A stretch of DNA of 64,000 nucleotides, from NCBI GenBank assembly GCA_030710605.1, contig CP092872.1, forward strand, positions 98,032,874 to 98,096,873, read 5' to 3'. Numbering within the stretch: position 1 is the stretch's first letter; each line of letters begins with the position of its first letter. A program made the position numbers and the translations under genes. Shown one piece after another: positions 611 through 64,000 of the stretch. The notes beneath the pieces were generated by a model that did no database searches, was not told the DNA's origin, and saw only the letters and a list, made by a program, of their open reading frames with translations. The DNA is from Cordylochernes scorpioides. Taxonomy: Eukaryota > Arthropoda > Arachnida > Pseudoscorpiones > Chernetidae.

Positions 611-1924
611 ATTGAACTTTAGATATGATTCCTGGATGAAAAGATAAAAGAGTTGTTAATATTTGTTCTGATCGATGACGGAATCCATCAGAACCATTGA
701 TTTGCATAATCAGAAGATTAAATTTTATTAATTTCACCACCTAATCTAGAGCATTTGTCCCATGTTGAAATATCAATTTAATGCTTCAAAAATTAGATTA
801 AATTCTATAATAAAATTTCTATATTAAAACACACATATATTTAAATATATATTTCTATAAACTTTCGTGATTCCCATATTTCGCCACAAATTACTCTCCC
901 GTTATATATCCCCTTCTCTATTCCATTTTTGGGTCTTGATTTAATTTGCAAGAGCGACGTCCGCTGTAGACAGGTACAGATCAAAATTAACAAATCCTAC
1001 ATGCCTTCTATATTGAAAATGTTCACATATTGCTATTAAACACAACATATCTTCTGAAGTAAATGAATAATTGACAATAGTTTAACACGCACATATATGG
1101 TACTATAGAATTCGAATCTATTTATCGTTAATAGAAGAAAAAAGTTGTTTTGTTTCAATAAAAGATGGCGCGCTAAAATAGTTTCAAATTGAAAGTATAG
1201 ATGGCGCGCATTACGTCACTATCCAGACAAGAAATAAAATGACCCCTCTTATAAAACTCAATTGCATATTGCCGAACTTATATTCTTCAAAAATTAAATG
1301 ATCCTTGTTTGCACATAACAGTATTATGGTTTCTTAGTAATTTGACTCTTATTGGACATTTGGCAAAGAGGCAATCTTTCTCACCTCCTTCTTGCAATTT
1401 GGATAATATCTTTCATCGCGTGCGCGTTCAGAAAGCCGTGTATACAGACAGTTCTTCCGACTCTTTACATATCCTGACGGTTTTATTTGCATAAGTATGG
1501 ACATTAGGCTGTCCCTCGTGTTTGTGCCGGCGGACTAGATAGTTCCACCATCGCGAGCGAGATATGATCTGCCTACACCACGATTGTTTCCCCACTCCGA
1601 TAATGAGGCAGTTTCTCAAGATCCCATTGTACTCACCTCAGGCGACGTTTTCAATTACCACATATCTCCGTTTAGAAGGAAATGCCATCATTCGGAATAC
1701 GGCTCTTATAAACTTTCTTACAATTGACTTTGTTTCCGGTTCCCGTGATCAAAATGAGAAATTTACATCATAGAAAGTCCTGGTTGAGAACTCACTTTAA
1801 AAAGAGCTATACCAGTTTTGAGAGGTTGGTTATTTTCAAAGTTTTGCTTCTCCGTTAGCCTCCAGCGCTGGCATTCCCCATACTTTGCTGTTATAAATCA
1901 ACTAACTCCCACTTTGCCGGTCCG
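611..1924. other. gene-free stretch
   Basis: AT-rich sequence with no supported gene. Two short segments near 1165 and 1200 contain 'gatggcgcgc', a motif that recurs in degraded repeats elsewhere, but no element boundaries can be drawn. Confidence 0.45.
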
Positions 1925-9157: not shown

Positions 9158-9617
9158 TACTCATGGACACAACTTAAGGAAGTGGAAGTCTTTGATGACC
9201 GGTTGTCTGTTTTTTTTTTTTTTTTTTTTCAAGAAGATTACAGAGGCAATTTTGTTCACATTTGGTTATCTCGTGTGTATTTAATAAAGGTCACTGTAAT
9301 ATTTTTCAGAGTTATTGTCTGAATCCCGATATACATGCTGAAAGGTACAACTTCCTTAAGATTTGTCCATGAGTGTATATTGGTTATCTCGTGTGTCTTC
9401 AATAAAGGTCACTGTAATATCTTTCAGAGTTTTTGTATGAATGCCGATATACATGTCAAAAGATACAACTTCCTTATGTCTTGTCCATGAGTGTATTTTG
9501 GTTATCTCGTGTGTCTTCAATAAAGGTCACTGTAATATCTTTCAGAGTTATTGTAAGAATCCCGATACACATGTCAAAAGGTACAACTTCCTTATGTCTT
9601 GTCCATGAGTGTGTATA
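9158..9617 (+). mobile_element. family M with three tandem terminal monomers
   Basis: It begins with the M left terminus and a T-run (about 9211-9230). Three head-to-tail ~118-bp units follow, each reading GTTATCTCGTGTGT ... AATAAAGGTCACTGTAATAT ... CCGATATACATG ... TGTCCATGAGTGTAT. Non-coding. Confidence 0.85.
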
Positions 9618-9819: not shown

Positions 9820-12800
9820 ACAATAACTAACCTTTTGACATGTGAATCGGGATTGAGACAATAACTCTGAAAGATATTACAGTGACCTTTATTGTAGACA
9901 CACGAGATAACCAATATACGCTCATGGACAAAACTTAAGGAATTTGTACCCTTTGACATGTGTATCGGGATTCAGATAATATCAGTGTAGCGTATATTAA
10001 CAGTGTAGCGTATATTAACAGTGTAGCGTATATTAACAGTGTAGTATATATTAACAGTGTAGTATATATTAACAGTGTATTATATATTAACAGTGTAGCG
10101 TATATTAACAGTGTAGCGTATATTAACAGTGTAGTATATATTAACAGTGTAGTATATATTAACAGTGTAGCGTATATTAACAGTGTAGTATATATTAACA
10201 GTGTAGTATATATTAACAGTGTAGTATATATTAACAGTGTAGCGTATATTAACAGTGTAGTATATATTAACAGTGTAGTATATATTAACAGTGTAGTATA
10301 TATTAACAGTGTAGCGTATATTAACAGTGTAGTATATATTAACAGTGTAGTATATATTAACAGTGTAGCGTATATTAACAGTGTAGCGTATATTAACAGT
10401 GTAGTATATATTAACAGTGTAGTATATATTAACAGTGTAGCGTATATTAACAGTGTAGCGTATATTAACAGTGTAGTATATATTAGCAGTGTAGCGTATA
10501 TTAACAGTGTAGTATATATTAACAGTGTAGTATATATTAACAGTGTAGTATATATTAACAGTGTAGTATATATTAACAGTGTAGTATATATTAACAGTGT
10601 AGCATATATTAACAGTGTAGTATATATTAACAGTGTAGTATATATTAACAGTGTAGCGTATATTAACAGTGTAGTATATATTAACAGTGTAGCGTATATT
10701 AACAGTGTAGAATATATTAACAGTGTAGCGTATATTAACAGTGTAGTATATATTAACAGTGTAGTATATATTAACAGTGTAGCGTATATTAACAGTGTAG
10801 CGTATATTAACAGTGTAGTATATATTAACAGTGTAGTATATATTAACAGTGTAGCGTATATTAACAGTGTAGTATATATTAACAGTGTAGCGTATATTAA
10901 CAGTGTAGCATATATTAACAGTGTAGTATATATTAACAGTGTAGTATATATTAACAGTGTAGTATATATTAACAGTGTAGCGTATATTAACAGTGTAGTA
11001 TATATTAACAGTGTAGCGTATATTAACAGTGTAGCGTATATTAACAGTGTAGCATATATTAACAGTGTAGTATATATTAACAGTGTAGTATATATTAACA
11101 GTGTAGCATATATTAACAGTGTAGTATATATTAACAGTGTAGCATATATTAACAGTGTAGTATATATTAACAGTGTAGTATATATTAACAGTGTAGTATA
11201 TATTAACAGTGTAGTATATATTAACAGTGTAGTATATATTAACAGTGTAGCATATATTAACAGTGTAGTATATATTAACAGTGTAGTATATATTAACAGT
11301 GTAGCGTATATTAACAGTGTAGCGTATATTAACAGTGTAGTATATATTAGCAGTGTAGCGTATATTAACAGTGTAGTATATATTAACAGTGTAGTATATA
11401 TTAACAGTGTAGTATATATTAACAGTGTAGCGTATATTAACAGTGTAGTATATATTAACAGTGTAGTATATATTAACAGTGTAGCATATATTAACAGTGT
11501 AGTATATATTAACAGTGTAGTATATATTAACAGTGTAGCGTATATTAACAGTGTAGTATATATTAACAGTGTAGCGTATATTAACAGTGTAGCGTATATT
11601 AACAGTGTAGTATATATTAACAGTGTAGCGTATATTAACAGTGTAGCGTATATTAACAGTGTAGTATATATTAACAGTGTAGCGTATATTAACAGTGTAG
11701 TATATATTAACAGTGTAGTATATATTAACAGTGTAGTATATATTAACAGTGTAGTATATATTAACAGTGTAGCGTATATTAACAGTGTAGTATATATTAA
11801 CAGTGTAGCATATATTAACAGTGTAGTATATATTAGCAGTGTAGCGTATATTAACAGTGTAGTATATATTAACAGTGTAGCGTATATTAACAGTGTAGCG
11901 TATATTAACAGTGTAGTATATATTAACAGTGTAGCGTATATTAACAGTGTAGTATATATTAACAGTGTAGTATATATTAACAGTGTAGTATATATTAACA
12001 GTGTAGTATATATTAACAGTGTAGTATATATTAACAGTGTAGTATATATTAACAGTGTAGTATATATTAACAGTGTAGTATATATTAACAGTGTAGTATA
12101 TATTAACAGTGTAGCGTATATTAACAGTGTAGTATATATTAGCAGTGTAGCGTATATTAACAGTGTAGTATATATTAACAGTGTAGTATATATTAACAGT
12201 GTAGCGTATATTAACAGTGTAGTATATATTAACAGTGTAGTATATATTAACAGTGAAGCGTATATTAACAGTGTAGTATATATTAACAGTGTAGCATATA
12301 TTAACAGTGTAGTATATATTAGCAGTGTAGCGTATATTAACAGTGTAGTATATATTAACAGTGTAGTATATATTAACAGTGTAGTATATATTAACAGTGT
12401 AGTATATATTAACAGTGTAGCGTATATTAACAGTGTAGTATATATTAACAGTGTAGCGTATATTAACAGTGTAGCGTATATTAACAGTGTAGTATATATT
12501 AACAGTGTAGCGTATATTAACAGTGTAGCGTATATTAACAGTGTAGTATATATTAACAGTGTAGCATATATTAACAGTGTAGTATATATTAACAGTGTAG
12601 TATATATTAACAGTGTAGTATATATTAACAGTGTAGTATATATTAACAGTGTAGTATATATTAACAGTGTAGCATATATTAACAGTGTAGTATATATTAG
12701 CAGTGTAGCGTATATTAACAGTGTAGTATATATTAGCAGTGTAGCGTATATTAACAGTGTAGCGTATATTAACAGTGTAGTATATATTAACAGTGTAGCG

Positions 12801-13830
12801 TATATTAACAGTGTAGCGTATATTAACAGTGTAGTATATATTAACAGTGTAGCGTATATTAACAGTGTAGTATATATTAACAGTGTAGTATATATTAACA
12901 GTGTAGTATATATTAACAGTGTAGTATATATTAACAGTGTAGTATATATTAACAGTGAAGCGTATATTAACAGTGTAGTATATATTAACAGTGTAGCATA
13001 TATTAACAGTGTAGTATATATTAGCAGTGTAGCGTATATTAACAGTGTAGTATATATTAACAGTGTAGTATATATTAACAGTGTAGTATATATTAACAGT
13101 GTAGTATATATTAACAGTGTAGTATATATTAACAGTGTAGTATATATTAACAGTGTAGTATATATTAACAGTGTAGTATATATTAACAGTGTAGCATATA
13201 TTAACAGTGTAGTATATATTAACAGTGTAGTATATATTAACAGTGTAGCGTATATTAACAGTGTAGCGTATATTAACAGTGTAGTATATATTAGCAGTGT
13301 AGCGTATATTAACAGTGTAGTATATATTAACAGTGTAGCGTATATTAACAGTGTAGCGTATATTAACAGTGTAGCGTATATTAACAGTGTAGTATATATT
13401 AACAGTGTAGTATATATTAACAGTGTAGCGTATATTAACAGTGTAGCGTATATTAACAGTGTAGCGTATATTAACAGTGTAGTATATATTAGCAGTGTAG
13501 CATATATTAACGGTGTAGTATATATTAGCAGTGTAGCATATATTAGCAGTGTAGCATATATTAGCGGTGTAGCATATATTAGCAGTGTAGCATATATTAG
13601 CAGTGTAGCATATTTTAGCAGTGTAGCATATATTAGCAGTGTAGCATATTTTAGCAGTGTAGCATATTTTAGCAGTGTAGCATATATTAGCAATGTAGTA
13701 TATATTAGCAGTGTAGCATATATTAGCAGTGTAGCATATATTAGCAGTGTAGCATATTTTAGCAGTGTAGCATATATTAGCAGTGTAGCGTATAAGACTT
13801 TTCACTTCCTTTAGTTTTGCTCATGAGTGA
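9820..13830 (-). mobile_element. family M element carrying a giant minisatellite
   Basis: The left flank has M body sequence (9840-9915) and a fresh M terminus (9923-9975, GGACAAAACTTAAGG ... TATCGGGATTCAGAT). The right flank ends in the complementary terminus (CACTTCCTTTAGTTTTGCTC, about 13803-13822). The normal M interior between these points is replaced by the 18-bp array at 9983-13793. Confidence 0.8.
9983..13793. repeat. 18-bp minisatellite, ~212 copies
   Basis: The unit is CAGTGTAG(CG/TA/CA)TATATTAA, repeated without a length change for 3.8 kb. The dinucleotide varies from unit to unit. A rarer TTAGCA variant recurs at intervals, as if multi-unit blocks had been duplicated. The last ~300 bp (from 13490) hold an older subtype (GCATATATTAGCAGT, some ATTTTAG). 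Because 18 is a multiple of three, three of the six frames stay open for over 1,200 codons; these are artefacts with a 6-residue period. Confidence 0.98.
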
Positions 13831-16594: not shown

Positions 16595-16924
16595 TATACA
16601 CTCATGGACAAAACTTAAGGAAGTGGAAGATCTTCGACGCTGTGTCGGTTGTCTGTTTTTTTAAGGAGACAGAGGCAATTTTGTTCACACTTGGTTATCT
16701 CGTGTGTCTTCAATAAAGGTTACTGTAATATCTTTCAGAGTTATTGTCTCAATCCCGATATACATGGTAAAAGATACAACTTCCTTAAGTTTTATCAATG
16801 AGTGTATATTGGTTATCTCGTGTGTCTTCAATAAAGGTCACTGTAATATCTTTCAGAGTTATTGTCTCAATCCCGATATACATGCTAAAAGATACAACTT
16901 CCTTAAGTTTTGCCCATGAGTGTA
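16595..16924 (+). mobile_element. family M with two terminal monomers
   Basis: It starts CACTCATGGACAAAACTTAA just after TA and ends TTGCCCATGAGTGTA. Inside are two ~118-bp monomers with the AATAAAGGT(T/C)ACTGTAATAT block. Non-coding. Confidence 0.85.
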
Positions 16925-17226
16925 TTTGTGTGTTTTTAAGAATTAAATGGAATACATAATACCACTCAAATGTTGATTGATAACTCAAACCCACCTCACT
17001 ATGATAGCTTCAGATTAAAATTATCCACAAAAATATTACCTTAGATCAAATTGTGATGGCAAGAAACTGAGAGTGAAGAGGGAAAATGTAAACTTTGAAG
17101 TAGTGAACAACTATCAACACGCCTGGACGGAATTTAGTGACGGGAACATTTTCTCATCTTATAAATGTTATAAAATATATATCCACACACAATTATGAAA
17201 ATGAACATATAATATTATAAAATAAA

Positions 17227-18910: not shown

Positions 18911-18979
18911 GGATTGTAGATGTTTATTTTATTTAGAAAAAAAATACAACATAAAGTGAAAAAATAGTACAAAAATTTA

Positions 18980-19112
18980 TTGATTAATCAAAAATGGGTA
19001 TTTGGCCAATTCTGGAATAATTAAAAATCAACGAGAATAGTTGATATTTATTCCGATAGATGGCGCAAGCCATCAGCAACTTTCAGTTGCACGATAAGGA
19101 GATGCCTTTTTC
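18980..19112 (+). mobile_element. HH-A element, 5'-truncated tail
   Basis: It retains ATGGGTATTTGGCCAATTCT through GATAGATGGCGCAAGCCATC to CACGATAAGGAGATGCCTTT. The ribozyme at the head is absent. The same tail occurs at 47310, 50700 and, reversed, at 49138, 50395 and 63925. Confidence 0.8.
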
Positions 19113-19310: not shown

Positions 19311-20234
19311 TACACTCATGGACAAAACTTAAGGAAGTTTCTACCTTTTACCATGTATATCGGGATTGAGACAATAACTCTGAAATATATTACAGTGACC
19401 TTTATTGAAGACACACGAGATAACCAATATACACTCATGGACAATACTTAAGGAAGTTGTACCTTTTACCATGTATATCGGGATTAAGACAATAACTCTG
19501 AAAGATATTACAGTGACCTTTATTGAAGACACACGAGATAACCAATAAACACTCATGGACAAAACTTAAGGAAGTTGTACCTTTTAGCATATATATCGGG
19601 ATTCAGACAATAACTCTGAAAGATAATACAGTGACCTTTATTGAAGACACACGAGATAACCAATAAACACTCATGGACAAAACTTAAAGAAATTGTACCT
19701 TTTAGCATGTATATCGGGATTCAGACAATAACTCTGAAAGATATTACAGTGACCTTTATTGAACACACACGAGATAACCAATATACACTCATGGACAAAA
19801 CTTAAAGAAGTTGTATCTTTCAGCATGTATATCGGGATTGAGACAATAACTCTGAAAGATATTACAGTGACCTTTATTGAAGACACACGAGATAACCAAT
19901 ATTCACTCATGGACAAAACTTAAGGAAGTTGTACCTTTTAGCATATATATCGGGATTAAGACAATAACTCCAAAAGATATTACAGTGACCTTTATTGAAG
20001 ACACACGAGATAACCAATATACACTCATGGACAAAACTTAAGGAAGTTGTACCTTTCAGCATGTATATCTGGATTCAGACAATAACTCTGAAAGATATTA
20101 CAGTGACCTTTATTAAAGACACACGAGATAACCAAGTGTGAACAACCTCTGTCTCTTAAAAAAAAAAATAATAATAAAGGACCAGCGATATTAAAGACTT
20201 TCCACTTCCTTAAATTGTGACCATGAGTGTATAA
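19311..20234 (-). mobile_element. family M array, seven terminal monomers
   Basis: Seven head-to-tail ~118-bp monomers begin at about 19311, 19428, 19547, 19665, 19784, 19903 and 20022. Each starts with CACTCATGGACAAAACTTAA or a close variant. The array closes at 20234 with a complete M right end. Open frames of 73-81 codons are repeat frames. Confidence 0.95.
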
Positions 20235-22115: not shown

Positions 22116-23765
22116 GTGAGTAATGTTTAAATAATAACTATACAACATTTATAACAATTATTATAGCAAATTTAAAGACATATATTTAACTTACACTAGA
22201 TGTGAATAGAATAGTAATAATATGTATTTTTGTTTCGTTGTAGGTATAATAATATACGATGTATAATTTAAACAACGTGTTGATGTAAAAAATATAAATA
22301 TAAAGTGTAATAAACCATTTTAATTACATAATTTCATCTGGTGAGTAATGTTTAAATAATAACTATACAACATTTATAACAATTATTATAGCAAATTTAA
22401 AGACCTATATTTAACTTACACTAGATGTGAATAGAATAGTAATAATATGTATTTTTGTTTCGTTGTAGGTCATTGCGTTGTCATTTTGCGATGTCATTGC
22501 GATGGTCATTGCATGTTGATGTAAAAAATATAAATATAAAAAAGTGTAATAAACCATTTTAATTAAATAATTTCATCTGGTGAGTAATGTTTAAATTGGA
22601 GTTGTGTTCACCTCTTGACCTCTTTACATTAAAATACCAACTTACCAAACCGAAAATATTGTTTATCTACTCGCCCTTACACTAGATGTGAATAGAATAG
22701 TAATAATATGTATTTTTGTTTCGTTGTAGGTCATTGCTTTGTCATTTTGCGATGTCATTGCGATGGTCATTGCATGTTGATGTAAAAGATATAAATATAA
22801 AGTGTAATAAACCATTTTAATTAAATATTTTCATCTGGTGCGTAATGTTTAAATTGGAGTTGTGTTCACCTCTTGACCTCTTTACATTAAAATACCAACT
22901 TACCAAACCGAAAATATTGTTTATCTACTCGCCCTTACACTAGATGTGAATAGAATAGTAATAATATGTATTTTTGTTTCGTTGTAGGTCATTGCGTTGT
23001 CATTTTGCGATGTCATTGCGATGGTCATTGCATGTTGATGTAAAAAATATAAATATAAAAAGTGTAATAAACCATTTTAATTAAATAATTTCATCTGGTG
23101 AGTAATGTTTAAATTGGAGTTGTGTTCACCTCTTGACCTCTTTACATTAAAATACCAACTTACCAAACCGAAAATATTGTTTATCTACTCGCCCTTACAC
23201 TAGATGTGAATAGAATAGTAATAATATGTATTTTTGTTTCGTTGTAGGTCATTGCTTTGTCATTTTGCGATGTCATTGCGATGGTCATTGCATGTTGATG
23301 TAAAAGATATAAATATAAAGTGTAATAAACCATTTTAATTAAATATTTTCATCTGGTGCGTAATGTTTAAATTGGAGTTGTGTTCACCTCTTGACCTCTT
23401 TACATTAAAATACCAACTTACCAAACCGAAAATATTGTTTATCTACTCGCCCTTACACTAGATGTGAATAGAATAGTAATAATATGTATTTTTGTTTCGT
23501 TGTAGGTCATTGCGTTGTCATTTTGCGATGTCATTGCGATGGTCATTGCATGTTGATGTAAAAAATATAAATATAAAAAGTGTAATAAACCATTTTAATT
23601 AAATAATTTCATCTGGTGAGTAATGTTTAAATTGGAGTTGTGTTCACCTCTTGACCTCTTTACATTAAAATACCAACTTACCAAACCGAAAATATTGTTT
23701 ATCTACTCGCCCTTACACTAGATGTGAATAGAATAGTAATAATATGTATTTTTGTTTCGTTGTAG
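22116..23765 (+). repeat. six tandem exon-intron leader modules
   Basis: Each unit has a donor-like CTG|GT(G/C)... site, an intron-like body and the acceptor TTTTGTTTCGTTGTAG. The putative introns are 22116-22243, 22341-22468, 22580-22729, 22838-22987, 23098-23247, 23356-23505 and 23616-23765 (the last five all 150 bp). The intervening exons are 97-111 nt. From 22580 the unit is ~260 bp, and two subtypes alternate with donors GTGAGT and GTGCGT. The last acceptor lies 66 bp before the transposase ATG at 23832. The exons contain several GTCATTGC repeats and short upstream ATG frames. Confidence 0.85.
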
Positions 23766-23831
23766 GTCATTGCCTTCTATCTTCGGACGACTCATTTGTC
23801 ACCAAGCGTTCAATTGTAAGACGTTTTTGAA

Positions 23832-25826
23832 ATGCCACGAAAAAAGAACAACATTGGAAGATCAACCAGAAATGCGCGGCAAGCGGCAGCCAGTCGAGCT
23901 GCTGAAACACCCGAAGAGCGAGACACACGACGGGAAAGTGTTCGCGTCAGAGCGTCTACTTCAAGAGCTGCTGCAACACCCGAAGAGCGAGACACACGAC
24001 GGGAAATTGATCGAGTCAGAGCGTCTACTTCAAGAGCTGCTGCAACACCCGAAGAGCGAGACACACGACGGGAAATTGATCGAGTCAGAGCGTCTACTTC
24101 AAGAGCTGCTGCAACACCCGAACAGCGAGACACACGACGGGAAATTGATCGAGTCAGAGCGTCTACTTCAAGAGCTGCTGCAACACCCGAACAGCGAGAC
24201 ACACGACGGGAAATTGATCGAGTCAGAGGGTCTACTTCAAGAGCTGCTGCAACACCCGAACAGCGAGACACACGACGGGAAATTGATCGAGTCAGAGCGT
24301 CTACTTCAAGAGCTGCTGCAACACCCGAACAGCGAGACACACGACGGGCAATTGATCGAGTCAGAGGGTCTACTTCAAGAGCTGCTGCAACACCCGAACA
24401 GCGAGACACACGACGGGAAATCGAACGAATCAGAGCGTCTACTTCAAGGGCTGCTGAAACACCCGAAGAGCGAGATGCACGACATGAGGCACAACGCTCA
24501 CGCCAGGCTCGATCACGAACGAGGATCGCTCTAACAAAAGCTGCGTTCAACTACGATAAACAATACGATTACAAAATGCATCAAGATTTGGTCATTGGTC
24601 CAATGGATAAATTGTGTCTACACTGTCATGCATTGAAGTTTCAGAAGGAAACGCCCGGGATGTGTTGCTCCAATGGGAAAGTCAATTTGCCTCCGATGGT
24701 TGAGCCGCCACAGCCACTTCTAACATACGTAGCTGGAGCAACTCGGGAGTCGAAACATTTCCTTCAGCATATTCGGAAGTACAACTCATGCTTCCAAATG
24801 ACATCGTTTGGAGCGACGCATATTGAGCGTTTTGGAAATTTCGAGCCCACATTCAAAGTGCAAGGGCAAGTGTACCATCAGATTGGTTCACTTCTTCCAG
24901 TATCCAATGAAGATCCGAGGTTTTTGCAGATTTATTTCATGGACAACGTGGAGGAGGAGATTGATCGACGATGCGCATTCAGTGAAGCAACAAGGCGGGC
25001 AATCATCGCTGAATTACAAACGCTATTCCACGAGCACAACTGTTTGGTCCGAGACTTCAAATCCGCAGTAGAGAATGTGCGAGCGGATGATATGAAAGTC
25101 ATCATCAGGGCAGACAAGAGGCCGACGAATGAGCATGAACGACGCTTCAATGCTCCGATGACTCCTGAAGTAGCAGCTGTGATTGTCGGTACAGAGATCG
25201 CCCGACGAGATATTGTTATCTGCAGACGAGATGGAACCAAGCAACGTGTTGCTGAAACGCACCGATCGTACGACGCCCTTCAATATCCAATAATATTTCC
25301 GCGCGGTGAAGACGGATATCATCTCGAACTGTATCAAGTTCATCCTATCTCAGGCGCCGTGACAATGAAAAAAGTCAGCTGTATGGACTTCTATGCATAT
25401 CGCATCATGATTCGAGCCCAAGAATCCAACCACATCCTGAAGTGTCGTCAGCTTTTCCAACAATTCATCGTTGACATGTATGCCAAAGTCGAAAGCGAAC
25501 GTCTCAACTACATTCGCTTCAATCAGTCAAAGCTTCGAGCTGACCAATACATTCATTTGCGGGATGCAATCGCGAATGATGGAGCCGCTGCTGCTGCAAA
25601 CATTGGGCAAATGGTCATACTTCCAGCTTCGTACGCTGGAAGTCCGAGACATATGCATGAATATGCTCAGGATGCTATGACTTATGTTCGCACATATGGA
25701 CGTCCAGATCTTTCCTCACATTCACTTGCAATCCAGCATGGGCCGAAATCAAAAATCTACTTCTGCCTGGCCAACAGCCATCTCATCGGCATGACCTCAC
25801 AGCGAGAGTTTTCAAACAGAAATTGA
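23832..25826 (+). CDS. Helitron Rep-helicase, N-terminal part (frameshifted)
   Basis: This 664-codon frame is the first half of a Helitron transposase. Residues ~21-227 are nine 23-residue charged repeats (SRAAATPEQRDTRREIDRVR-type, 69-bp DNA period). A cysteine cluster follows (CLHCHALKFQ ... MCC, ~250-275), then the Helitron-like N-terminal domain (SFGATHIERFGNFEPTF, YPIIFPRGEDGYH, MDFYAYRIMIR). The start ATG follows the last leader acceptor by 66 bp. The frame goes wrong after ...RTYGRPDL: a T appears to be missing from the run at 25711-25713. The last ~38 residues are out of frame, and the expected sequence (TCNPAWAEIKNLLLPGQQP) continues in the frame of the next entry. I infer one original protein. 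Confidence 0.9.
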   Translation: MPRKKNNIGRSTRNARQAAASRAAETPEERDTRRESVRVRASTSRAAATPEERDTRREIDRVRASTSRAAATPEERDTRREIDRVRASTSRAAATPEQRDTRREIDRVRASTSRAAATPEQRDTRREIDRVRGSTSRAAATPEQRDTRREIDRVRASTSRAAATPEQRDTRRAIDRVRGSTSRAAATPEQRDTRREIERIRASTSRAAETPEERDARHEAQRSRQARSRTRIALTKAAFNYDKQYDYKMHQDLVIGPMDKLCLHCHALKFQKETPGMCCSNGKVNLPPMVEPPQPLLTYVAGATRESKHFLQHIRKYNSCFQMTSFGATHIERFGNFEPTFKVQGQVYHQIGSLLPVSNEDPRFLQIYFMDNVEEEIDRRCAFSEATRRAIIAELQTLFHEHNCLVRDFKSAVENVRADDMKVIIRADKRPTNEHERRFNAPMTPEVAAVIVGTEIARRDIVICRRDGTKQRVAETHRSYDALQYPIIFPRGEDGYHLELYQVHPISGAVTMKKVSCMDFYAYRIMIRAQESNHILKCRQLFQQFIVDMYAKVESERLNYIRFNQSKLRADQYIHLRDAIANDGAAAAANIGQMVILPASYAGSPRHMHEYAQDAMTYVRTYGRPDLSSHSLAIQHGPKSKIYFCLANSHLIGMTSQREFSNRN

Positions 25827-28687
25827 AATGTTTTATTGATCTCATCGTTAAGAACCATATATACGGTCCAACACGCTGCTGGATGTATTCCATCGAATGG
25901 CAAAAAAGAGGCACTCCACATGCTCACATCTTGATTTGGTTGGAGGAAAAAATTCTTCCAACTCAAATCGATAATATCATTTCTGCTGAGCTGCCTGATC
26001 CACAAGACGATCCTGAATTGTACCAGATTATCAAGAAATATATGATTCACGGACCGTGTGGAGCGCTAAACCCACATTCACCGTGCATAAAGGATGGCAA
26101 ATGCACCAAAAGGTATCCAAGAGACCTGGTGCATGACACACAAACTGGTGGCGACGGTTATCCTCTGTACAGACGACGAAAACCAGAGGATGGTGGCCAC
26201 ACAGCAACAATCAAACTCAATCACGTTGATTTTGAGGTTGATAACCGGTGGATTGTGCCTTACTCTCCTTTGCTCTCGAAAGCATTTGATGCGCATATCA
26301 ACGTGGAGTTTTGCAATTCTGTCAAATCGATCAAATACATTTGTAAATACGTGAATAAGGGCAGTGATATGGCAGTTTTTGGACTTCAAAATCCAAATGC
26401 ACCCGTCAATGAAATCGACCAGTTTCAAATGGGACGTTATATCAGCAGCAATGAAGCTGTATGGCGAATCCTTGGCTTTGACATCCACGAACGCTCTCCT
26501 GCTGTCGTCCATCTCAGTGTGCATTTGGAAAATGGTCAACGAGTATACTTCACAGAAGAGAGCGCGGCCCAGCGAGCTGAAAATCCACCCAATACAACGT
26601 TGACTGCATTTTTTCAATTGTGTGCCAGTGACACATTCGCTGCAACATTGCTGTATCATCAGGTTCCGACGTATTACACATGGAATCTGTCAACGAAGAA
26701 GTGGCAACGGAGAAAAAAAGGCTTGCTGCACTCTTCAATGGTTCAGGTATATTCCTCTGGCGCATTGGGGCGAGTGTATACTGTCCATCCGAGCAATGCT
26801 GAATGCTACTATTTGCGAATGCTGCTTCATGTAGTCAAAGGACTGAAATCGTTCGAATCTATCAAAACCGTCAACGGCCAAATCTGTCAGACATATAGAG
26901 AGGCATGCTTCAAGCTTGGTCTGCTTGAAAATGATCAGCATTGGGACAACACACTGGCAGAGGCATCTGAAACATGTCATCCTAAGCAAATACGAACTCT
27001 GTTTGCTATCATTTTGACAACCTGCTCGCCTTCAGACCCAAAAGGCCTATGGGAGAAGCATAAAGAGAGTATGAGCGAAGACATACTTCGCCGTGTACGT
27101 AGTGCTAACCCCAATGCGCAGAATTCGGATGAAATTTTCAATGAAGCGCTGATATCACTTGAGGATATATGTTTGTCGATCAACAACAAAATTCTCGATC
27201 AGCTTGGCTTGATCTCACCCGAGCGTGGCAGAAATGATGCTGTCGACAGAGATATGTTGCGAGAAATGCAATACGACGCTGATACGCTGCAAGTTTATGT
27301 TGAGACTCAGAAAAGACTCTTAACAAACGAACAAAACCTTGCGTACAACACAGTCACGGAGCATGTGCGAACCGGAAATGGTGGTCTTCTGTTCCTTGAT
27401 GCCCCAGGAGGAACTGGGAAAACATTTTTGCTCAATTTGATTCTCGCCGAAATTCGTATGAAACATGAGATTGCTCTGGCTGTGGCATCGTCGGGAATTG
27501 CGGCAACACTGCTCGATGGAGGACGTACGGCGCATTCGGCATTCAAGCTGCCATTGAATTTGAATATAGCCGACGTTCCTCTCTGCAACATCGGAAAAAC
27601 ATCAGGAATGGCCACTGTGTTGAAAACGTGCCAAATCATCATTTGGGATGAATGTACGATGGCTCACAAGAAAGCGCTTGAGGCACTTGATCGTACTCTT
27701 CGCGATTTCCGAGGCAATCAACGCCTAATGGGTGGAGCTCTGATACTGCTCGCTGGTGATTTCCGTCAAATCTTGCCTGTCATTCCAAGAGCAACACCAG
27801 CAGATGAGCTGAACGCATGCTTGAAGAATTCGGCTCTCTGGAGACATGTGAAGAAAATTACACTGTCGACCAATATGCGTGCGCATTTACATGGAGATGT
27901 TTCTGCACAAACATTTGCCAAGCAGCTTTTGAATATGGGCGACGGCAAAATTCCGGTTGATCCTGCAACACACGAGATATCGTTCCCACCGAACTTCTGT
28001 CAACTTCAGGCGTCAATTGGAGATCTTGAAAAGGTAGTTTTCCCGGATATTGCCACTAATTTCAAGAATCACGACTGGCTTTGCGAGCGAGCTATCTTAG
28101 CTCCGAAGAATGATGACGTCAATCGCATCAATCATAAGATACAATTGAAAATTCCTGGAGCGGTCACGCAATACAAATCTATTGACACAGTCACAGAAGA
28201 GGACCAAGCTGTCAATTATCCAGTCGAATTTCTCAATTCATTGGAGCCTCCTGGAATGCCACCGCATGTATTGTCGTTGAAAGTTGGCTCGCCAATATTG
28301 CTTCTTCGGAATCTCAACACACCCAAGTTGTGCAACGGAACCAGACTTTCCGTAAAAAGGTTGATGCCGAATGTGATTGAAACGACGATAATCAGTGGCA
28401 AATGTAAAGGAGAGGATGTGCTCATTCCGCGCATTCCAATGATCCCCACTGATTTGCCCTTCACATTCAAGCGACTTCAGTTTCCCGTGCGTCTCGCTTT
28501 CGCAATGACAATCAACAAATCCCAAGGACAGTCGCTGCGAGTTGACGGTTTGCATTTAGGAAATCCATGTTTTTCACATGGTCAACTCTACGTCGCTTGC
28601 TCCCGAGTTGGAACGCCAAAAAATCTATATATCTACGCACCAAACGAGAGGACCAAAAATATTGTGTATCCACTCGCGTTACGATAG
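25823..28687 (+). CDS. Helitron Rep-helicase, HUH nuclease and Pif1 helicase part
   Basis: This 954-codon frame has no stop and no natural ATG at its start (it opens at TTG), so it is the continuation of the preceding frame. The HUH nuclease motif is RGTPHAHILIWL (residues 29-40; His33, His35). The two-tyrosine catalytic motif is KYICKYVNKG (Tyr172, Tyr176). A Cys/His-rich segment (GPCGALNPHSPC) lies between them. The SF1B Pif1-like helicase has Walker A GGTGKT (529-534), Walker B IIIWDE (605-610), GDFRQILPVIP (645-655), TINKSQGQSL and GQLYVACSRVG near the C-terminus. The protein would nick, strand-transfer and unwind DNA in rolling-circle transposition. All catalytic residues look intact, so only the single upstream frameshift blocks activity. 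Confidence 0.93.
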   Translation: MKCFIDLIVKNHIYGPTRCWMYSIEWQKRGTPHAHILIWLEEKILPTQIDNIISAELPDPQDDPELYQIIKKYMIHGPCGALNPHSPCIKDGKCTKRYPRDLVHDTQTGGDGYPLYRRRKPEDGGHTATIKLNHVDFEVDNRWIVPYSPLLSKAFDAHINVEFCNSVKSIKYICKYVNKGSDMAVFGLQNPNAPVNEIDQFQMGRYISSNEAVWRILGFDIHERSPAVVHLSVHLENGQRVYFTEESAAQRAENPPNTTLTAFFQLCASDTFAATLLYHQVPTYYTWNLSTKKWQRRKKGLLHSSMVQVYSSGALGRVYTVHPSNAECYYLRMLLHVVKGLKSFESIKTVNGQICQTYREACFKLGLLENDQHWDNTLAEASETCHPKQIRTLFAIILTTCSPSDPKGLWEKHKESMSEDILRRVRSANPNAQNSDEIFNEALISLEDICLSINNKILDQLGLISPERGRNDAVDRDMLREMQYDADTLQVYVETQKRLLTNEQNLAYNTVTEHVRTGNGGLLFLDAPGGTGKTFLLNLILAEIRMKHEIALAVASSGIAATLLDGGRTAHSAFKLPLNLNIADVPLCNIGKTSGMATVLKTCQIIIWDECTMAHKKALEALDRTLRDFRGNQRLMGGALILLAGDFRQILPVIPRATPADELNACLKNSALWRHVKKITLSTNMRAHLHGDVSAQTFAKQLLNMGDGKIPVDPATHEISFPPNFCQLQASIGDLEKVVFPDIATNFKNHDWLCERAILAPKNDDVNRINHKIQLKIPGAVTQYKSIDTVTEEDQAVNYPVEFLNSLEPPGMPPHVLSLKVGSPILLLRNLNTPKLCNGTRLSVKRLMPNVIETTIISGKCKGEDVLIPRIPMIPTDLPFTFKRLQFPVRLAFAMTINKSQGQSLRVDGLHLGNPCFSHGQLYVACSRVGTPKNLYIYAPNERTKNIVYPLALR

Positions 28688-45799: not shown

Positions 45800-45863
45800 T
45801 TCCTTATTGCGAGAAAAAAATATTGGGAGGGTTTGGCTTATTAGTGGTGAACTCTCCCAACAG
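45800..45863 (-). repeat. family K fragment ending the Copia gag
   Basis: The reverse strand reads TTGGGAGAGTTCACCACTAA then TAAGCCAAACCCTCCCAATA. It joins gag sequence directly at about 45861, so this K copy either inserted there or marks a deletion breakpoint. Confidence 0.65.
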
Positions 45864-46298
45864 GATGGAAAGGAAGTCTTCTGGGACTTGTGCATCCATT
45901 TCACTCAACTTGTCAGCCAAACTACTAAATTTGTTGAGATAATCCTGCATCCTTTCATTTGGTTTCATTTTCAATAATATTAACTGTTTCGTAAGAAACA
46001 CCTTCGTTGCAGGTCCTTTTGGCTGATGCACTTCATTTAAAAGCTTCCATGCCTCTGCAGAAGTTTTACATCGCTTCACGTGTATTATTTCCGAAGGACT
46101 TAAACTTAAGACTATAGTTGCTAGCGCCTTCTGGTCATTCTTCTCCCATTCAGCCGATTCTACTTCGGTTTCAGGTTTGATCCTTATGCTATTTGCATAA
46201 TCCCAAAGTTCGGAATGGATAAGAATCATTTTCATTTGCATCTTCCATGTCTCGTAATTTTCAGAATTTAATTTTTCTATTTGATAAAGGCTTGACAT
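45861..46298 (-). pseudogene. gag: Copia-type gag, N-terminal fragment
   Basis: The minus-strand frame starts MSSLYQIEKLNSENYETWKM and continues with WEKNDQKALATIVLSLSP, AEAWKLLNEVHQPKG and ERMQDYLNKFSSLADKLSE. This is the Ty1/Copia gag layout (DUF4219/UBN2-like). About 146 residues remain, then the frame runs into K repeat sequence. No nucleocapsid knuckle, protease, integrase or reverse transcriptase follows. The position is consistent with the LTR and primer-binding site just upstream. Confidence 0.85.
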
Positions 46299-46612: not shown

Positions 46613-47004
46613 TCATTGTACCAGTGATAAACCAAAATGCAATTTAAGGACCACAAACTGCCTTATTATTCAGAAATACGCATTGTGTACTTGTTGATAT
46701 AAGAAACTGGCTCAACATTTGGAAAATGAAATCAAAGCCGATCAAGAGCTTTGTTTTATAGATTGAAAACGAAATGTAAACTAATGAAAACGCTTATGTG
46801 GTTGACTTTTCTTGATTTATCAAGGTTGACTAAATATCACGGAACAATTTAAATCAATTTTTAGATAATTTTTGTTCCACTAATTGGCGCTCTGCCTTCT
46901 AAAACGATCCTGCACGTGGTGAAGATATGCCTTTTTGTTTTTAATATTGCAACGTGGAAAAATAGGAAAGACCAACCTCAATTACAACACTCAACTTCGG
47001 TAAT
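46613..47004. other. gene-free stretch with R2 remnant
   Basis: From ~46925, TGGAAAAATAGGAAAGACCA resembles repeat R2. It resumes at 47213 (AAAATATAAATACCAAAATT) after the small Helitron. No gene. Confidence 0.45.
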
Positions 47005-48690: not shown

Positions 48691-49137
48691 TCTATTTGGT
48701 TTTATTTTGTTAAAAAATATATATTGCTCTAAATAGTTTCAAAATTTCATATTTGGATGGTGTGTTATTTCTTTGTATATTTGAGATAGTTTTGGTATTT
48801 ATATATTGCATAGATATGTGTGTGTTGTATAAGATTGTTCATATAGCAATGCTGAAAGTCTCCGCGTGGGTTTGACAATTCCAATTGATGACAATGGAGA
48901 TGCTCAGAAAGACAATATTAAGAATCAAAAAGGATTTTTTTCACACAAATTTAAAAAATGATAACTAATTTTATTGGAATTCATCGGGCATTCCGAACTG
49001 TATATGAAAATATCAAAAATTATTCTTCTTTTCTTCAATTCTGTCTATCCACAGAATCCTTTTGTCTGCGATATTATATGATTTGGTTTTAGCACTTTTA
49101 AGATACCATCAATCATTTCGTTGACATTTCACACTTT
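48691..49137. other. gene-free stretch
   Basis: AT-rich; nothing supported. Confidence 0.4.
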
Positions 49138-49400
49138 AAGAAAAAGGCATCTCCTGGTAGTGCTAATATCAGTCTTACGCCATGTGTCGGGATAAATACC
49201 AACTAATCGTTTATTATTAATTATACCAGAATTGGCCAAATACCCTTTCTTGATTATCGAAGAAAAGTTAACCACGTTAGTCTTTCGGGCTGTTGGCCCT
49301 CATCAGCGCGATGCAAGCTGTACCTCAACGACCGAAAAGGTTAGTGTTTGGGGCATCCTGAAAATTCATGAAACAGGTATTCAGGCCGTGAGAACGCCAA
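49138..49400 (-). mobile_element. HH-A element with mutated hammerhead
   Basis: The minus strand contains CTGATGA (49300-49306), stem II GGGC-CAACA-GCCC (49287-49299), GAAA (49283-49286) and CGTGG (49272-49276). The U before the cleavage site has become A (...GACTAA|CGTGG). The tail (GGCCAATTCTGGTATAATTA, TCTCCT-complement) is HH-A. Confidence 0.75.
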
Positions 49401-50394
49401 ACTAAGTAAAAATGTTACAAAAGTGAAATTGTACTAGGATTTTACACTTTAATGACATTTTACAGTTTATTTCAGCATTTATTTCCTAATAACGACACAT
49501 TGTAATATAACTATTTTCTTTGCACTCTAAAGAAAACTATTTAAAAAATCAAACGATTTAAAAATTTTATTTGAATTTTTTATCAATTAGACTGAAATAC
49601 GTTTTAAGTTTTTTTTTAAATAGAAATACACATTTTGGCCATACCTATAATACTGGAGGTGTCTTGCGCTACAGAGGAAATCCTGGAGATTAATATTTGT
49701 TAGAGACACATATGCATAATTTGCATAGGTATAATTGCATATATAATCAAAATGTATATTATCTTTAAAATATATATCAATTATAAATATTATTTAAAGA
49801 TCATATTAGTAAAACAGTACAAATATACAAATATATTCACAAATATTTTTAAAGTTCATCATTAGTTTTAGCATAAAAACAAGTTTTTTTATGCGTGTAA
49901 AAAGTTGAATGTAGATATTAAAAACCCGATTCTACAAAATTATTTTCTGTGGATTGTTAATGAACCCCTACAGTGACATCCTCCCAGACTTACACGATTT
50001 AATTATTCATTTTAATTATAAATATTTACATCGAACAATGTGTTTCCTCTAACAATAAGGACAAAGCCAGTTAGGTATAAATTAATTATGAAGCAATGAC
50101 ACACCATATATACAAAATGGACATTCATTCTTTATGTCTTAGGTACATAAGATGGAGTCTTATTACCTAATGTTTGAAATCGGAGTAAAGAATCTGGGTT
50201 CAGTTGGCCAAGCCACTCTGTGAAATAATTTATTGCGAAATATTTATATCTATTTTTTGTATTCCTATATTTATCATTATATAATCCTATTTATTCATAT
50301 TTATTCTGTATTTAACCTTATATAATCTTATATGGACTTTGTAATAAATCAGTTTCGATATCTTTATGAAATAATTGTGTGAGATTGTACTGGG
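49401..50394. other. gene-free stretch
   Basis: AT-rich. Short similarity of 50036-50110 to 18690-18775 (CAATAAGGACAAA(G/C)CCAGT) marks an unclassified repeat. No gene. Confidence 0.4.
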
Positions 50395-50850
50395 ATAAGG
50401 TGCAAAAGTTATCAAAAAGGACATCTCCTTATCGTGCAACTGAGAGTTGCTGATGGCTTGAACCATCTATCGGAATAAATATTAACTATTCTTTTTTCTA
50501 ATTATTACAGAAGTTGGTTAAATACCCATTCTTCATTAATCAAGAAAAGCTAACCACGGACGCGTTTCGGGCTGTTGTCCCTCGTCAGCGTGGTGCAAGC
50601 TGTACTTAAACGACCAAAAAACTTGGTCATTAAGGCATCCTGAAAAATCATGAAACGGGTAGTTAAGGTCATATTTTTGCTTGAGTACGTGAAACAATAT
50701 GAAAAATAGTACAAATGTGAAAAATGGGTATTTGAACAATTCTGGAATAATTACAAAAATCAAGGAATAGTTGATATTTATTCCGATAGATGGCGCAAGC
50801 AATCAGCAACTCTTAGTTGCACGATAAGGAGATGCCCCCCCCCCTCCCCA
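50395..50850. mobile_element. paired HH-A elements in inverted orientation
   Basis: 50395-50625 is a full HH-A on the minus strand. 50700-50850 repeats its tail on the plus strand (ATGGGTATTTGAACAATTCT ... GATAGATGGCGCAAGCAATC). A non-matching ~75-bp spacer includes ATCATGAAACGGGTAG. Such inverted pairs recur at 51611-51762. Confidence 0.8.
50554..50593 (-). ncRNA. hammerhead ribozyme, textbook type I core
   Basis: Read on the minus strand: stem I CCACG (50593-50589), CTGACGA (50588-50582), stem II GGG-ACAACAG-CCC (50581-50569), GAA plus A15.1 (50568-50565), CGCG, U16.1 (50560), C17 (50559), then CGTGG (50558-50554), which pairs perfectly with CCACG. The expected cleavage is after C17 of GUC. 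Stem III is the self-complementary ACGCGU with no loop, the minimal arrangement that favours dimeric ribozymes in Penelope-like elements. All conserved core bases are present with correct spacing. Confidence 0.85.
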
Positions 50851-51545: not shown

Positions 51546-51610
51546 TAATATGTAAATATGTTAAAAATCGCACAAAAGTGAATTTTCACTTGGATCAGGT
51601 GGTTAAATTA

Positions 51611-51762
51611 AGAAAAAGAGAATTTCCTGATCGTGAAGCTAAAAGTTGCTGATGACTTGCGCCATCTATCGGAATAAATATCAACTAATTTAGTTCCGAT
51701 AGATGGCGCAAGTCATCAGAAACTTCTATTTGCATGATCAGGAAATGCTCTTTTTCTTAATG
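51611..51762. repeat. HH-A tail palindrome
   Basis: Arms of ~70 bp (GACTTGCGCCATCTATCGGA / TCCGATAGATGGCGCAAGTC) are separated by ~15 bp. Each arm is the distal part of HH-A; no ribozyme core is present. Confidence 0.8.
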
Positions 51763-52139
51763 TAAATATGTATAAATTTGTATATTTATAAAATTCAGTG
51801 TTTGGGAATACAGTGGACTATTGAATTGGAGTTTCGCGATTGAAAGCTGGCGTTTGAATAATAAAAGAAGAGACATTTTACAAATCGCCTTTCTATTTTA
51901 CTGTTATATAATAAGGGGGTAATAAACTTTGTAGAATTTATCCAGGACGGAAGGCAACGAGACACTTCGCTCTAACGACATAACAAGGGTTGCGTCACAA
52001 ACCCAATTAGTTACCACTTATGTGAAACTTATGTAAACAATGTCACACAGCCCAGATATACTATTGGTGTTTTAATTACAACCAGTAACGTGCGCCATTT
52101 ATGTACAAGGTGTTTTGTCATTAAATAATTTATTATTTT
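51763..52139. other. gene-free stretch
   Basis: Nothing supported. Confidence 0.4.
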
Positions 52140-63809: not shown

Positions 63810-63924
63810 ACCACTCATATACCGTTATATAAAACATCACCAGGTTAGAAACAGGAATGTTTGTATAGTAACATTTCTTATTATAAAAAAAATACGAATA
63901 AGACAGAAATATAAATGGTAAATA

Positions 63925-64000
63925 AAGAAAAAGGCATCTCCTTATTGTGCAACTGAAAGTTTCTGATGGCTTGCGCCATCTATCGGAATAAATACCAACT
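63925..64000 (-). mobile_element. HH-A tail, cut by window end
   Basis: AAAAAGGCATCTCCTTATTG ... GCTTGCGCCATCTATCGGAA is the reverse of the HH-A distal end. The element runs off the window, so its ribozyme head, if present, lies just beyond. Confidence 0.75.

What the first reader, a model, noticed from the sequence alone, without database searches (positions are those of the whole stretch)
50554..50593. Canonical hammerhead ribozyme in a short dispersed repeat (HH-A)
Seen: every conserved HHR base is present with correct spacing on the minus strand (CTGACGA, stem II GGG/CCC, GAAA, GUC cleavage triplet, stem I CCACG/CGTGG). Known: minimal type I HHRs with a loopless self-complementary stem III occur in Penelope-like elements and retrozymes and cleave as dimers. 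Stem III here is ACGCGU. The head is intact in only this copy of six or seven; others are mutated or deleted at the core.
Basis: partly seen in the sequence, partly recalled or inferred. Interest (0 to 1): 0.8.

Follow-up and report, generated by a model that had tools for sequence, protein, structure and literature searches.

The report
Ribozyme-bearing jumping repeat in animal genome
The window holds one copy of a short non-coding jumping repeat that carries a predicted RNA-cutting hammerhead ribozyme and whose genomic copies are often built like insertions of a known but poorly understood class of retroelement, the Penelope-like elements.

Summary
In detail: a complete minimal type I hammerhead lies at 50553-50594, minus strand (Rfam Hammerhead_1 21.1 bits, below its cut-off of 34). 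Its stem III (ACGCGU) is loopless and self-complementary, so it can close only between two ribozymes. The window's 2.62-Gb genome holds 13,165 exact matches to core, stem III and cut site (control 0). The host repeat is a 339-nt non-coding unit. Of 78 mapped insertions 33 have two arms, all joined head to head with tails outward; 45 show one arm. Of 29 two-armed ones with classifiable ends, 26 end at U~155 on one side and U~203 on the other. Flanks are AT-rich and share 9-21-nt words in 24 of 30. This is published Penelope-like anatomy (inverted pLTR, tail on one end). Penelope-like open frames in the same architecture occur in this genome but share no sequence with the unit, so the helper is inferred. 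Best reading: a non-autonomous retrozyme moved by Penelope-type machinery. Of 35 partner arms, 17 read through the cut site, and ends there are not clearly enriched. Ribozyme activity is untested.

The parts
50553..50594 (-). Minimal type I hammerhead ribozyme. Stem I 50589-50594 with 50553-50558; CUGACGA 50582-50588; stem II 50579-50581 with 50569-50571; GAA 50566-50568; stem III ACGCGU 50560-50565; C17 at 50559; predicted cut between 50559 and 50558
   Evidence: sequence, structural pattern, Rfam RF00163 21.1 bits, 13,165 exact matches to core, stem III and cut site in own genome vs 0 control
50368..50716 (-). Long (antisense) arm of foldback element A: about one full 339-nt unit including the ribozyme; outer end at RT site 2 (U~203) near 50368, read by eye
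   Evidence: unit mapping U183>177, 90% identity over 50384-50716; outer end extended by eye
50720..50836 (+). Short (sense) arm of foldback element A, 5'-truncated at U26, outer end at U~142 near RT site 1, followed by a C-run
   Evidence: unit mapping U26>142, 92% identity; inverted repeat
49136..49440 (-). Copy B, older (77%), spans the ribozyme region but stem III and cleavage triplet are lost; flanks share ACACTTTAA
47275..47389 (+). Copy C, 5'-truncated at U333 (7 nt upstream of the cut site), internally deleted; imperfect TSD ATAATAAATACTYTGT by eye
   Evidence: mapping; sequence
46788..46936 (+). Copy D, old, begins inside the ribozyme 3' part
18949..19112 (+). Copy E, two-armed (short antisense arm 18949-18976 to U208, sense arm 18976-19112 to U148); TSD ATACAACATAAAGT by eye; no ribozyme
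51558..51764 (.). Copy G, two-armed (51558-51695 minus ending at U203; 51688-51764 plus ending at U156), shared flank word ATGTAAATATGT; no ribozyme
63919..64000 (-). Copy F, cut by the window end
649..746 (+). Copy H, old fragment (71%)

Best explanation
The feature is the ribozyme of a non-autonomous, non-coding retroelement: a 339-nt unit (numbered U1 from the ribozyme cut site) that behaves as a metazoan non-LTR retrozyme moved by Penelope-type machinery. Proposed cycle: (1) copies, some of them tandem, are transcribed (inferred). (2) Two ribozymes pair through the self-complementary stem III and cut, giving monomers that may be re-ligated into circles (inferred from the motif and from published retrozymes). 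(3) A GIY-YIG/RT protein binds the region around U129-U203, cuts AT-rich, often (TA)n, target DNA on both strands and primes reverse transcription from both target ends in many insertions, as a rule one at U~155 and the other at U~203 (shown as an insertion pattern; the enzyme is inferred). (4) The two cDNAs run 5'-ward, often through the ribozyme and sometimes for several units, stop at variable points and are joined head to head; the staggered cut leaves the target duplication (shown as structure). Insertions with one arm only would arise when the second priming fails or stays very short (inferred).
For: 13,165 exact ribozyme matches vs 0 in the reversed-pattern control. In 60 loci (L009-L068, 78 distinct insertions) all 33 two-armed ones (32 '-+', of which L057 is cut by its locus end, and L053 '---+') have tails outward, none the other way. 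Ends: of the 32 not cut, 26 have one U~155 and one U~203 end, 2 are both 155, 1 both 203, 3 unclassified; 26 of 29 classifiable, P 1.5e-5; 25 of 28, P 2.7e-5, after dropping L053, which shares flanks with L052. Flank words of >=9 nt are shared in 24 of 30, permuted mean 8.7, maximum 13; (TA)>=5 near an end in 15 of 30 vs 7 of 236 background stretches. Arms of one insertion are more alike (98.5%) than arms of different ones (97.2%), 0 of 2000 permutations, 17 insertions. Tandem units with period 339 (L010/L013) and one 1.9-kb array (L062-L066). GIY-YIG matches abound (146 matches, 150 of 17,015 candidates scored). Of five canonical C-terminal-endonuclease stretches fetched, L072, L078, L079 and L080 are head-to-head foldbacks and L071 shows no repeat in its 3.5 kb. 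By eye L079 and L080 carry a minimal hammerhead with stem III ACGU, and of the three whose ends I read, L079 and L080 have an extra ~30-35 nt on one arm only, L078 on both. This matches published Penelope anatomy (PMC3846280 passages; PMC11167929 main text).
Against: 45 of 78 mapped insertions show one arm only; many are old fragments, but some are young (for example L022), so two-ended insertion is common, not universal. No Penelope-like protein (five query proteins) matches within 1.5 kb of the units in L009-L068 or in the window, and the unit shares no sequence with the autonomous stretches fetched, so the helper is not identified. A stem enclosing RT site 1 is predicted but covariation does not beat shuffles (134 of 500). 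Counts of exact 5' ends at the cut site are only modestly above two other positions and below a third (97, or 78 cleaned, vs 62, 36 and 122), so ribozyme cutting leaves no clear footprint in insertions. The isolated monomer is predicted to fold into an inactive pairing. No RNA data.
Confidence: 0.8

Rival explanations
1. A SINE moved by a LINE: a 3'-anchored, 5'-truncated element with a long target duplication; the inverted arms are separate insertions that happened to land side by side. The hammerhead is a chance head segment.
For: 5' truncation is common, shared flank words of 9-21 nt occur, and 45 of 78 insertions show one arm, all usual for LINE-driven SINEs.
Against: All 33 two-armed insertions have one order; arms of a pair share variants; target duplications flank the pair; units run head to tail for up to about 1.9 kb; two alternative ends, one per side in 26 of 29. 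ARAGORN finds no tRNA gene in the window; no search for other SINE heads was made.
Confidence: 0.06
2. A foldback or MITE-type DNA transposon with terminal inverted repeats, moved by a transposase.
For: Inverted arms and target duplications.
Against: Arms differ in length within one element and have no fixed inner end (one search list; 69-906 nt for arms ending at U203, 77-797 nt for arms ending at U155), outer ends are of two kinds, shared flank words vary in length, units can be tandem. Fixed termini of a DNA transposon are absent.
Confidence: 0.04
3. Same Penelope-type element, but the ribozyme plays no part in mobility: uncut transcripts are the template and the hammerhead is a passenger or serves another RNA-processing role.
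For: 17 of 35 partner arms extend past the cut site and 1 ends within 3 nt of it; 5' ends at the cut site are not clearly enriched; in the Anolis element ribozyme mutants did not change insertion in vitro (PMC11167929).
Against: Core and stem positions vary less than loop II in L010-L038 (18 of 1857 vs 11 of 265), relatives only ~70% alike keep a complete motif with changed stem II (L027, L043), and other hammerhead families in the genome have other self-complementary stem IIIs. Read-through is also what a re-ligated circle would give.
Confidence: 0.3

Closest known systems
Metazoan non-LTR retrozymes with type I hammerheads (Cervera and de la Pena 2020, PMC7229834, abstract and passages; review PMC7761336, two sections)
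   Same: Non-coding, ~170-400-nt tandem-capable units, low G+C, type I hammerhead, TSDs longer than 4 bp, up to thousands of copies; such repeats are also reported for insects (passage)
   Different: Here 33 of 78 mapped insertions are head-to-head foldbacks, with two defined RT start sites, and long tandems are few; stem III is the minimal kind that the review assigns to Penelope-like elements. No circular RNA shown here.
Penelope-like elements, Penelope/Poseidon type (Arkhipova 2013 PMC3846280, passages; Frangieh 2024 PMC11167929, main text)
   Same: Head-to-head inverted pLTR, optional tail on one end, target duplications, AT-rich target, two RT start sites, minimal hammerhead, tandem pLTRs
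   Different: No ORF, no RT or GIY-YIG domain; tail ~48 nt instead of 31-35; no sequence similarity to the autonomous stretches fetched
Naiad-type Penelope-like elements (recalled; Craig et al. 2021 is not held)
   Same: Insertion bias for microsatellites and complex inverted insertions (recalled); a Naiad-looking foldback occurs in this genome (L069)
   Different: Recalled as lacking canonical hammerheads; encode proteins
Hammerhead satellites of newts and Dolichopoda cave crickets (PMC6155905, PMC2837043, passages)
   Same: Hammerhead in repeats, cutting proposed to work through a double hammerhead
   Different: Satellite arrays; foldback insertions with tails are not described in the passages seen

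Membership tests
Hammerhead ribozyme, type I | Conserved core CUGANGA...GAA, NUH cleavage triplet, stems I-III in the type I order | tested here: met
   Rfam RF00163 21.1 bits, E 0.0021 on 66 bases
Hammerhead ribozyme, type I | Rfam gathering score (34 bits) | tested here: not met
   21.1 bits; no hit at gathering in the window
Hammerhead ribozyme, type I | Self-cleavage | not testable with these tools
   needs in vitro transcription
Metazoan non-LTR retrozyme | Non-coding unit of ~150-450 nt with one hammerhead per unit, found in tandem | tested here: met
   339-nt unit; tandem copies with period 337-342 in some loci, up to ~1.9 kb; no match to the Penelope-like query proteins within 1.5 kb
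Metazoan non-LTR retrozyme | Expression as linear and circular RNA | not testable with these tools
   no RNA data
Penelope-like element (insertion anatomy) | Head-to-head inverted terminal copies | tested here: met
   33 of 33 two-armed insertions; 45 of 78 insertions show one arm only
Penelope-like element (insertion anatomy) | Tail extension on one of the two ends | tested here: met
   26 of 29 classifiable; 25 of 28 after removing a duplicate
Penelope-like element (insertion anatomy) | Target duplication and AT-rich target | tested here: met
   24 of 30 share a flank word of >=9 nt; flanks 76-81% AT vs 66%
Penelope-like element (autonomous) | ORF with telomerase-like RT and GIY-YIG endonuclease | tested here: not met
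   none found in the unit or sampled flanks; hence filed only as a non-autonomous element that works like one
Penelope-like element (autonomous) | Sequence shared with an autonomous element of the same genome | tested here: not met
   no similarity to L069-L074, L078-L080 (one 43-nt 70% match in L074 at E 0.007 is taken as chance); most autonomous copies were not examined

The most novel reading that the evidence does not exclude
Metazoan retrozymes are mobilised by Penelope-type reverse transcriptases that commonly start from both ends of a cut target, one end at each of two RNA start sites (a one-tail rule), with self-complementary stem III kept so that the ribozyme works only as a dimer of neighbouring units. 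The insertion structure would then be the missing feature that links retrozymes to their helper.
Probability: 0.4. Interest if true: 0.7.

Novelty: new variant of a known kind. Interest (0 to 1): 0.5.

Why it matters
The retrozyme review states that metazoan retrozymes show no conserved motif from which their helper could be deduced (PMC7761336, its section 7), though it names Penelope-like elements as likely candidates (its section 6). Here a ribozyme repeat with more than thirteen thousand matches shows, in the copies examined, the diagnostic structure of Penelope-like insertions. If general, this names the helper class, and it gives natural statistics on how Penelope-type enzymes start DNA synthesis, studied in vitro for one lizard element (PMC11167929). 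The one-tail rule differs from that in vitro result, where no difference in start site between strands was seen.

Tried and rejected
Rfam scans of the whole window and of 451 bases gave no hammerhead; a 66-base scan did. Searches for the unit in phage records and for two patterns in viral contigs found nothing, as expected for an animal repeat. I first read the inverted arms as two SINE insertions; one search overturned that. The SINE and MITE readings were set aside. My pattern script listed no complete hammerhead in the autonomous stretches (one one-mismatch hit in L079); the motifs in L079 and L080 were read by eye, where the print of L078 begins inside stem II.

A footprint of ribozyme cutting was sought three ways. 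(a) Genome counts of three patterns of equal size along the unit: 22,619 just 3' of the cut site, 13,165 for the ribozyme, 9,229 upstream. The drop across the ribozyme is steeper per base, but much of it is sequence variation: of the first 100 3'-side hits, 43 have the exact ribozyme, 25 a full-length variant one, 32 (30 plus 2 duplicates) are truncated. (b) Among the 30 truncations, 3 end exactly at the cut site (0.45 expected, P 0.011) and 7 at 27-29 nt upstream (1.36 expected, P 0.0005); both post hoc. (c) Genome counts of exact junctions: cut site 97 (78 after removing prefixes CGT and ACG, which look like small deletions inside the ribozyme), 27 nt upstream 122, 10 nt upstream 36, 5 nt downstream 62. 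The excluded letters differ between these patterns, so ratios are rough. I do not claim a footprint at the cut site. Covariation in the proposed stem around RT site 1 is not significant. Arm lengths of the two end types do not differ (P 0.16).

Samples are not random: L009-L038 are the best matches to a window query that includes the ribozyme, L039-L068 the first 30 ribozyme places on contig C1. Dropped: L053 as duplicate of L052, L042 for lack of flank, three insertions cut by locus ends (L057, L062, L066); hits under 93% identity and L009, L039-L041; insertions with an arm under 93% or too short. The partner-arm count keeps L053 and three arms of the window's own copies. For one search I gave 15 of the 117 segments (40 of them printed), leaving out rows that stop at RT site 1, plus window copy A and L012.

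Full report
Observation. On the minus strand of the window at 50553-50594 every hammerhead core base is present with correct spacing. A pattern requiring the core, three stems and an NUH triplet hits the window once and 100 Markov windows never. Rfam's Hammerhead_1 model matches the same bases with 21.1 bits against a gathering score of 34; a low score is to be expected because stem III has no loop and stem II is short. Stem III, ACGCGU, is self-complementary, so a single molecule cannot close it as a hairpin; the monomer's predicted minimum-energy fold pairs part of the core with the cut site.

The repeat in this genome. The window lies in a 2.62-Gb, 24-contig assembly. Searching it with the window copy returned 52 matches from 40 of 5773 candidates scored, most about 90% identical over nearly the full length, some at a spacing of 339 nt. 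In the 30 loci fetched the ribozyme is nearly invariant: CCACG-CUGAUGA-GGGC-CAACA-GCCC-GAA-ACGCGU-C^CGUGG. An exact pattern for the core plus ACGCGUC counts 6557 + 6608 = 13,165 places; the reversed control counts 0. A 34-base tail pattern counts 16,463 (control 0). Thus the window copy is one member of a large family, and it differs from the common form at position 7 and in stem II.

Anatomy. I numbered the 339-nt unit from the cut site (U1). Mapping 60 loci gave 78 distinct insertions, counting related older families. Thirty-three have two arms, and in every one the tails point outward (head to head); none has the other order. Forty-five show one arm only; a few of these have a second arm too short to be mapped (L012, by eye), others, such as L022, appear truly one-armed. 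Outer ends cluster at U150-158 and U198-206. Of 32 two-armed insertions not cut by a locus end, 14 + 12 have one end of each kind, 2 have two U155 ends, 1 two U203 ends and 3 could not be classed. The 26 of 29 excess has P 1.5e-5; without L053, which shares flanks with L052, 25 of 28, P 2.7e-5. Shared flank words of at least 9 nt are found in 24 of 30 insertions against a permuted mean of 8.7 and maximum of 13; because many targets are (TA)n, part of the sharing is compositional, and the permutation control includes that. Flanks are 76-81% A+T against 66% nearby, and (TA)>=5 lies near an end in 15 of 30 against 7 of 236 background stretches. The two arms of one insertion are more alike than arms of different insertions (98.5% vs 97.2%; 0 of 2000 permutations; 17 insertions), so they come from the same or sister templates. 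Some arms run for several units (up to about 1.9 kb).

The window element. Element A occupies about 50368-50836: an antisense arm of a full unit with the ribozyme (50384-50716 by mapping, extended by eye to about 50368) and a sense arm 50720-50836. It is an old copy (about 90%), and no target duplication was recognised. Copies E and G in the window show the same two-armed plan.

Which machinery. Published Penelope elements have an inverted pLTR joined head to head, a 31-bp tail optionally present on one of the inverted pLTRs, and 8-10-bp target duplications (PMC3846280, passages). For an Anolis Penelope-like element both target strands are cut and extended, synthesis starts at two adjacent internal RNA sites that define the tail, and targets are AT-rich (PMC11167929, main text). 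The unit's insertions show each of these as a pattern. A GIY-YIG search in the genome scored 146 matches from 150 of 17,015 candidates; by eye at least ten lie in close pairs, the ones I noticed all '- then +'. L069 looks like a Naiad-type element with N-terminal endonuclease (recalled type) and is a 98% foldback. L071, L072, L078, L079 and L080 match a canonical protein with C-terminal endonuclease; L072, L078, L079 and L080 are head-to-head foldbacks, L071 shows no repeat in the 3.5 kb fetched. By eye, the ends of L079 and L080 carry CUGACGA-stem II-GAA-ACGU followed by C or U, a minimal hammerhead with a 4-nt self-complementary stem III; the two arms differ by about 30-35 nt at their ends in L079 and L080 but not in L078. 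None shares sequence with the unit, and no match to these proteins lies beside the units sampled, so the helper is inferred from structure alone.

The ribozyme's role. Evidence for upkeep: in L010-L038, chosen by overall similarity to the window copy, core plus stem positions differ from the majority in 18 of 1857 cells and loop II in 11 of 265, but the segment just downstream is as conserved (16 of 3139) and loop II differences are partly one subfamily. Relatives about 70% alike (L027, L043) keep a complete motif with changed but paired stem II and a GUU triplet, while others have lost it (L029, L048, L051, copy B). Self-complementary stem III recurs with different letters: ACGCGU; ACCAUGGU in a second family (55 + 62 = 117 places, control 0); ACGU in autonomous elements; and ACAUGU in a variant copy, L083. 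Evidence about use: of 35 partner arms not at the centre of their locus, 17 extend past the cut site and 1 ends within 3 nt of it. Exact junction counts are 97 at the cut site (78 cleaned), 122 at 27 nt upstream, 36 at 10 nt upstream and 62 at 5 nt downstream. So at least about half of these templates were uncut at that site or had been re-ligated; the data do not separate these. In the Anolis system ribozyme mutants did not change insertion in vitro and cutting needed the protein (PMC11167929).

RNA structure near the start sites. Folding predicts a stem GAUAAGG/CCUUAUC that puts RT site 1 in its loop and a hairpin before RT site 2 (L012, z -2.2), and a like stem in copy G (z -2.6); a more distant relative (L058) is weaker (z -1.0). 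Copy G has GAUCAGG/CCUGAUC. Across 17 aligned segments 86% of cells pair against 38-44% for slid versions, but changes on both sides do not exceed shuffles. I treat this stem as likely, not shown.

Literature. Searches of the held library gave no listing, as far as titles and abstract starts show, of head-to-head, tail-bearing insertions of a non-coding hammerhead unit; most subscription papers are not in that library, and two key papers could not be read. Insects are named among the animals with retrozyme-like hammerhead repeats (PMC7229834, passage).

Verdict. It is best filed as a new variant: a metazoan retrozyme with Penelope-type insertion anatomy. Shown: motif, copy number, foldback order in the two-armed insertions, tail pairing, target preference. 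Inferred: transcription, dimer cutting, circles, helper identity.

Noticed in passing
L081-L137 and genome-wide: Recurrent 5' ends at AUGAGGG inside the ribozyme core, 27 nt upstream of the cut site: 4 of 30 truncations exactly there, 122 exact junctions genome-wide against 36, 62 and 97 at three other positions. Cause unknown (RT stop at stem II, alternative RNA 5' end, or microhomology).
   Followed up: partly
L075, L076 (C1:30816741, C1:179544992) and 117 genome places: A second hammerhead family with stem III ACCAUGGU and an 11-nt stem-loop II; in L075 and L076 it also lies inside inverted repeats.
   Followed up: partly
L079, L080 (and L078): Canonical Penelope-like elements with long open frames; L079 and L080 show a minimal hammerhead (stem III ACGU) by eye, and an end extension of about 30-35 nt, with an ATG at its start in L080, on one arm (both arms in L078).
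   Followed up: partly
L069 (C1:8986800-8992300): Naiad-looking element (GIY-YIG before the RT part) present as two 98% identical 2.5-kb inverted arms.
   Followed up: partly
L053-L056 (C1:4128700-4129267): Inside one arm a segment of about 114 nt carrying the ribozyme is repeated in tandem; locus L052 with the same flanks lacks this.
   Followed up: no
window 9262-9616, 16691-16979, 19311-20135: Three separate short tandem arrays of one 118-bp repeat; by eye similar letters also flank L015 and L028.
   Followed up: no
window 23752-28687: Long overlapping open frames that by eye look like a Helitron Rep-helicase protein, with an N-terminal 69-bp repeat array (not searched against families).
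   Followed up: no
window 9983-13788: 3.8-kb array of an 18-bp satellite (CAGTGTAGTATATATTAA) with three long open frames.
   Followed up: no
window 45804-46298: Open frame on the minus strand that by eye looks like a copia-type gag (not searched against families).
   Followed up: no
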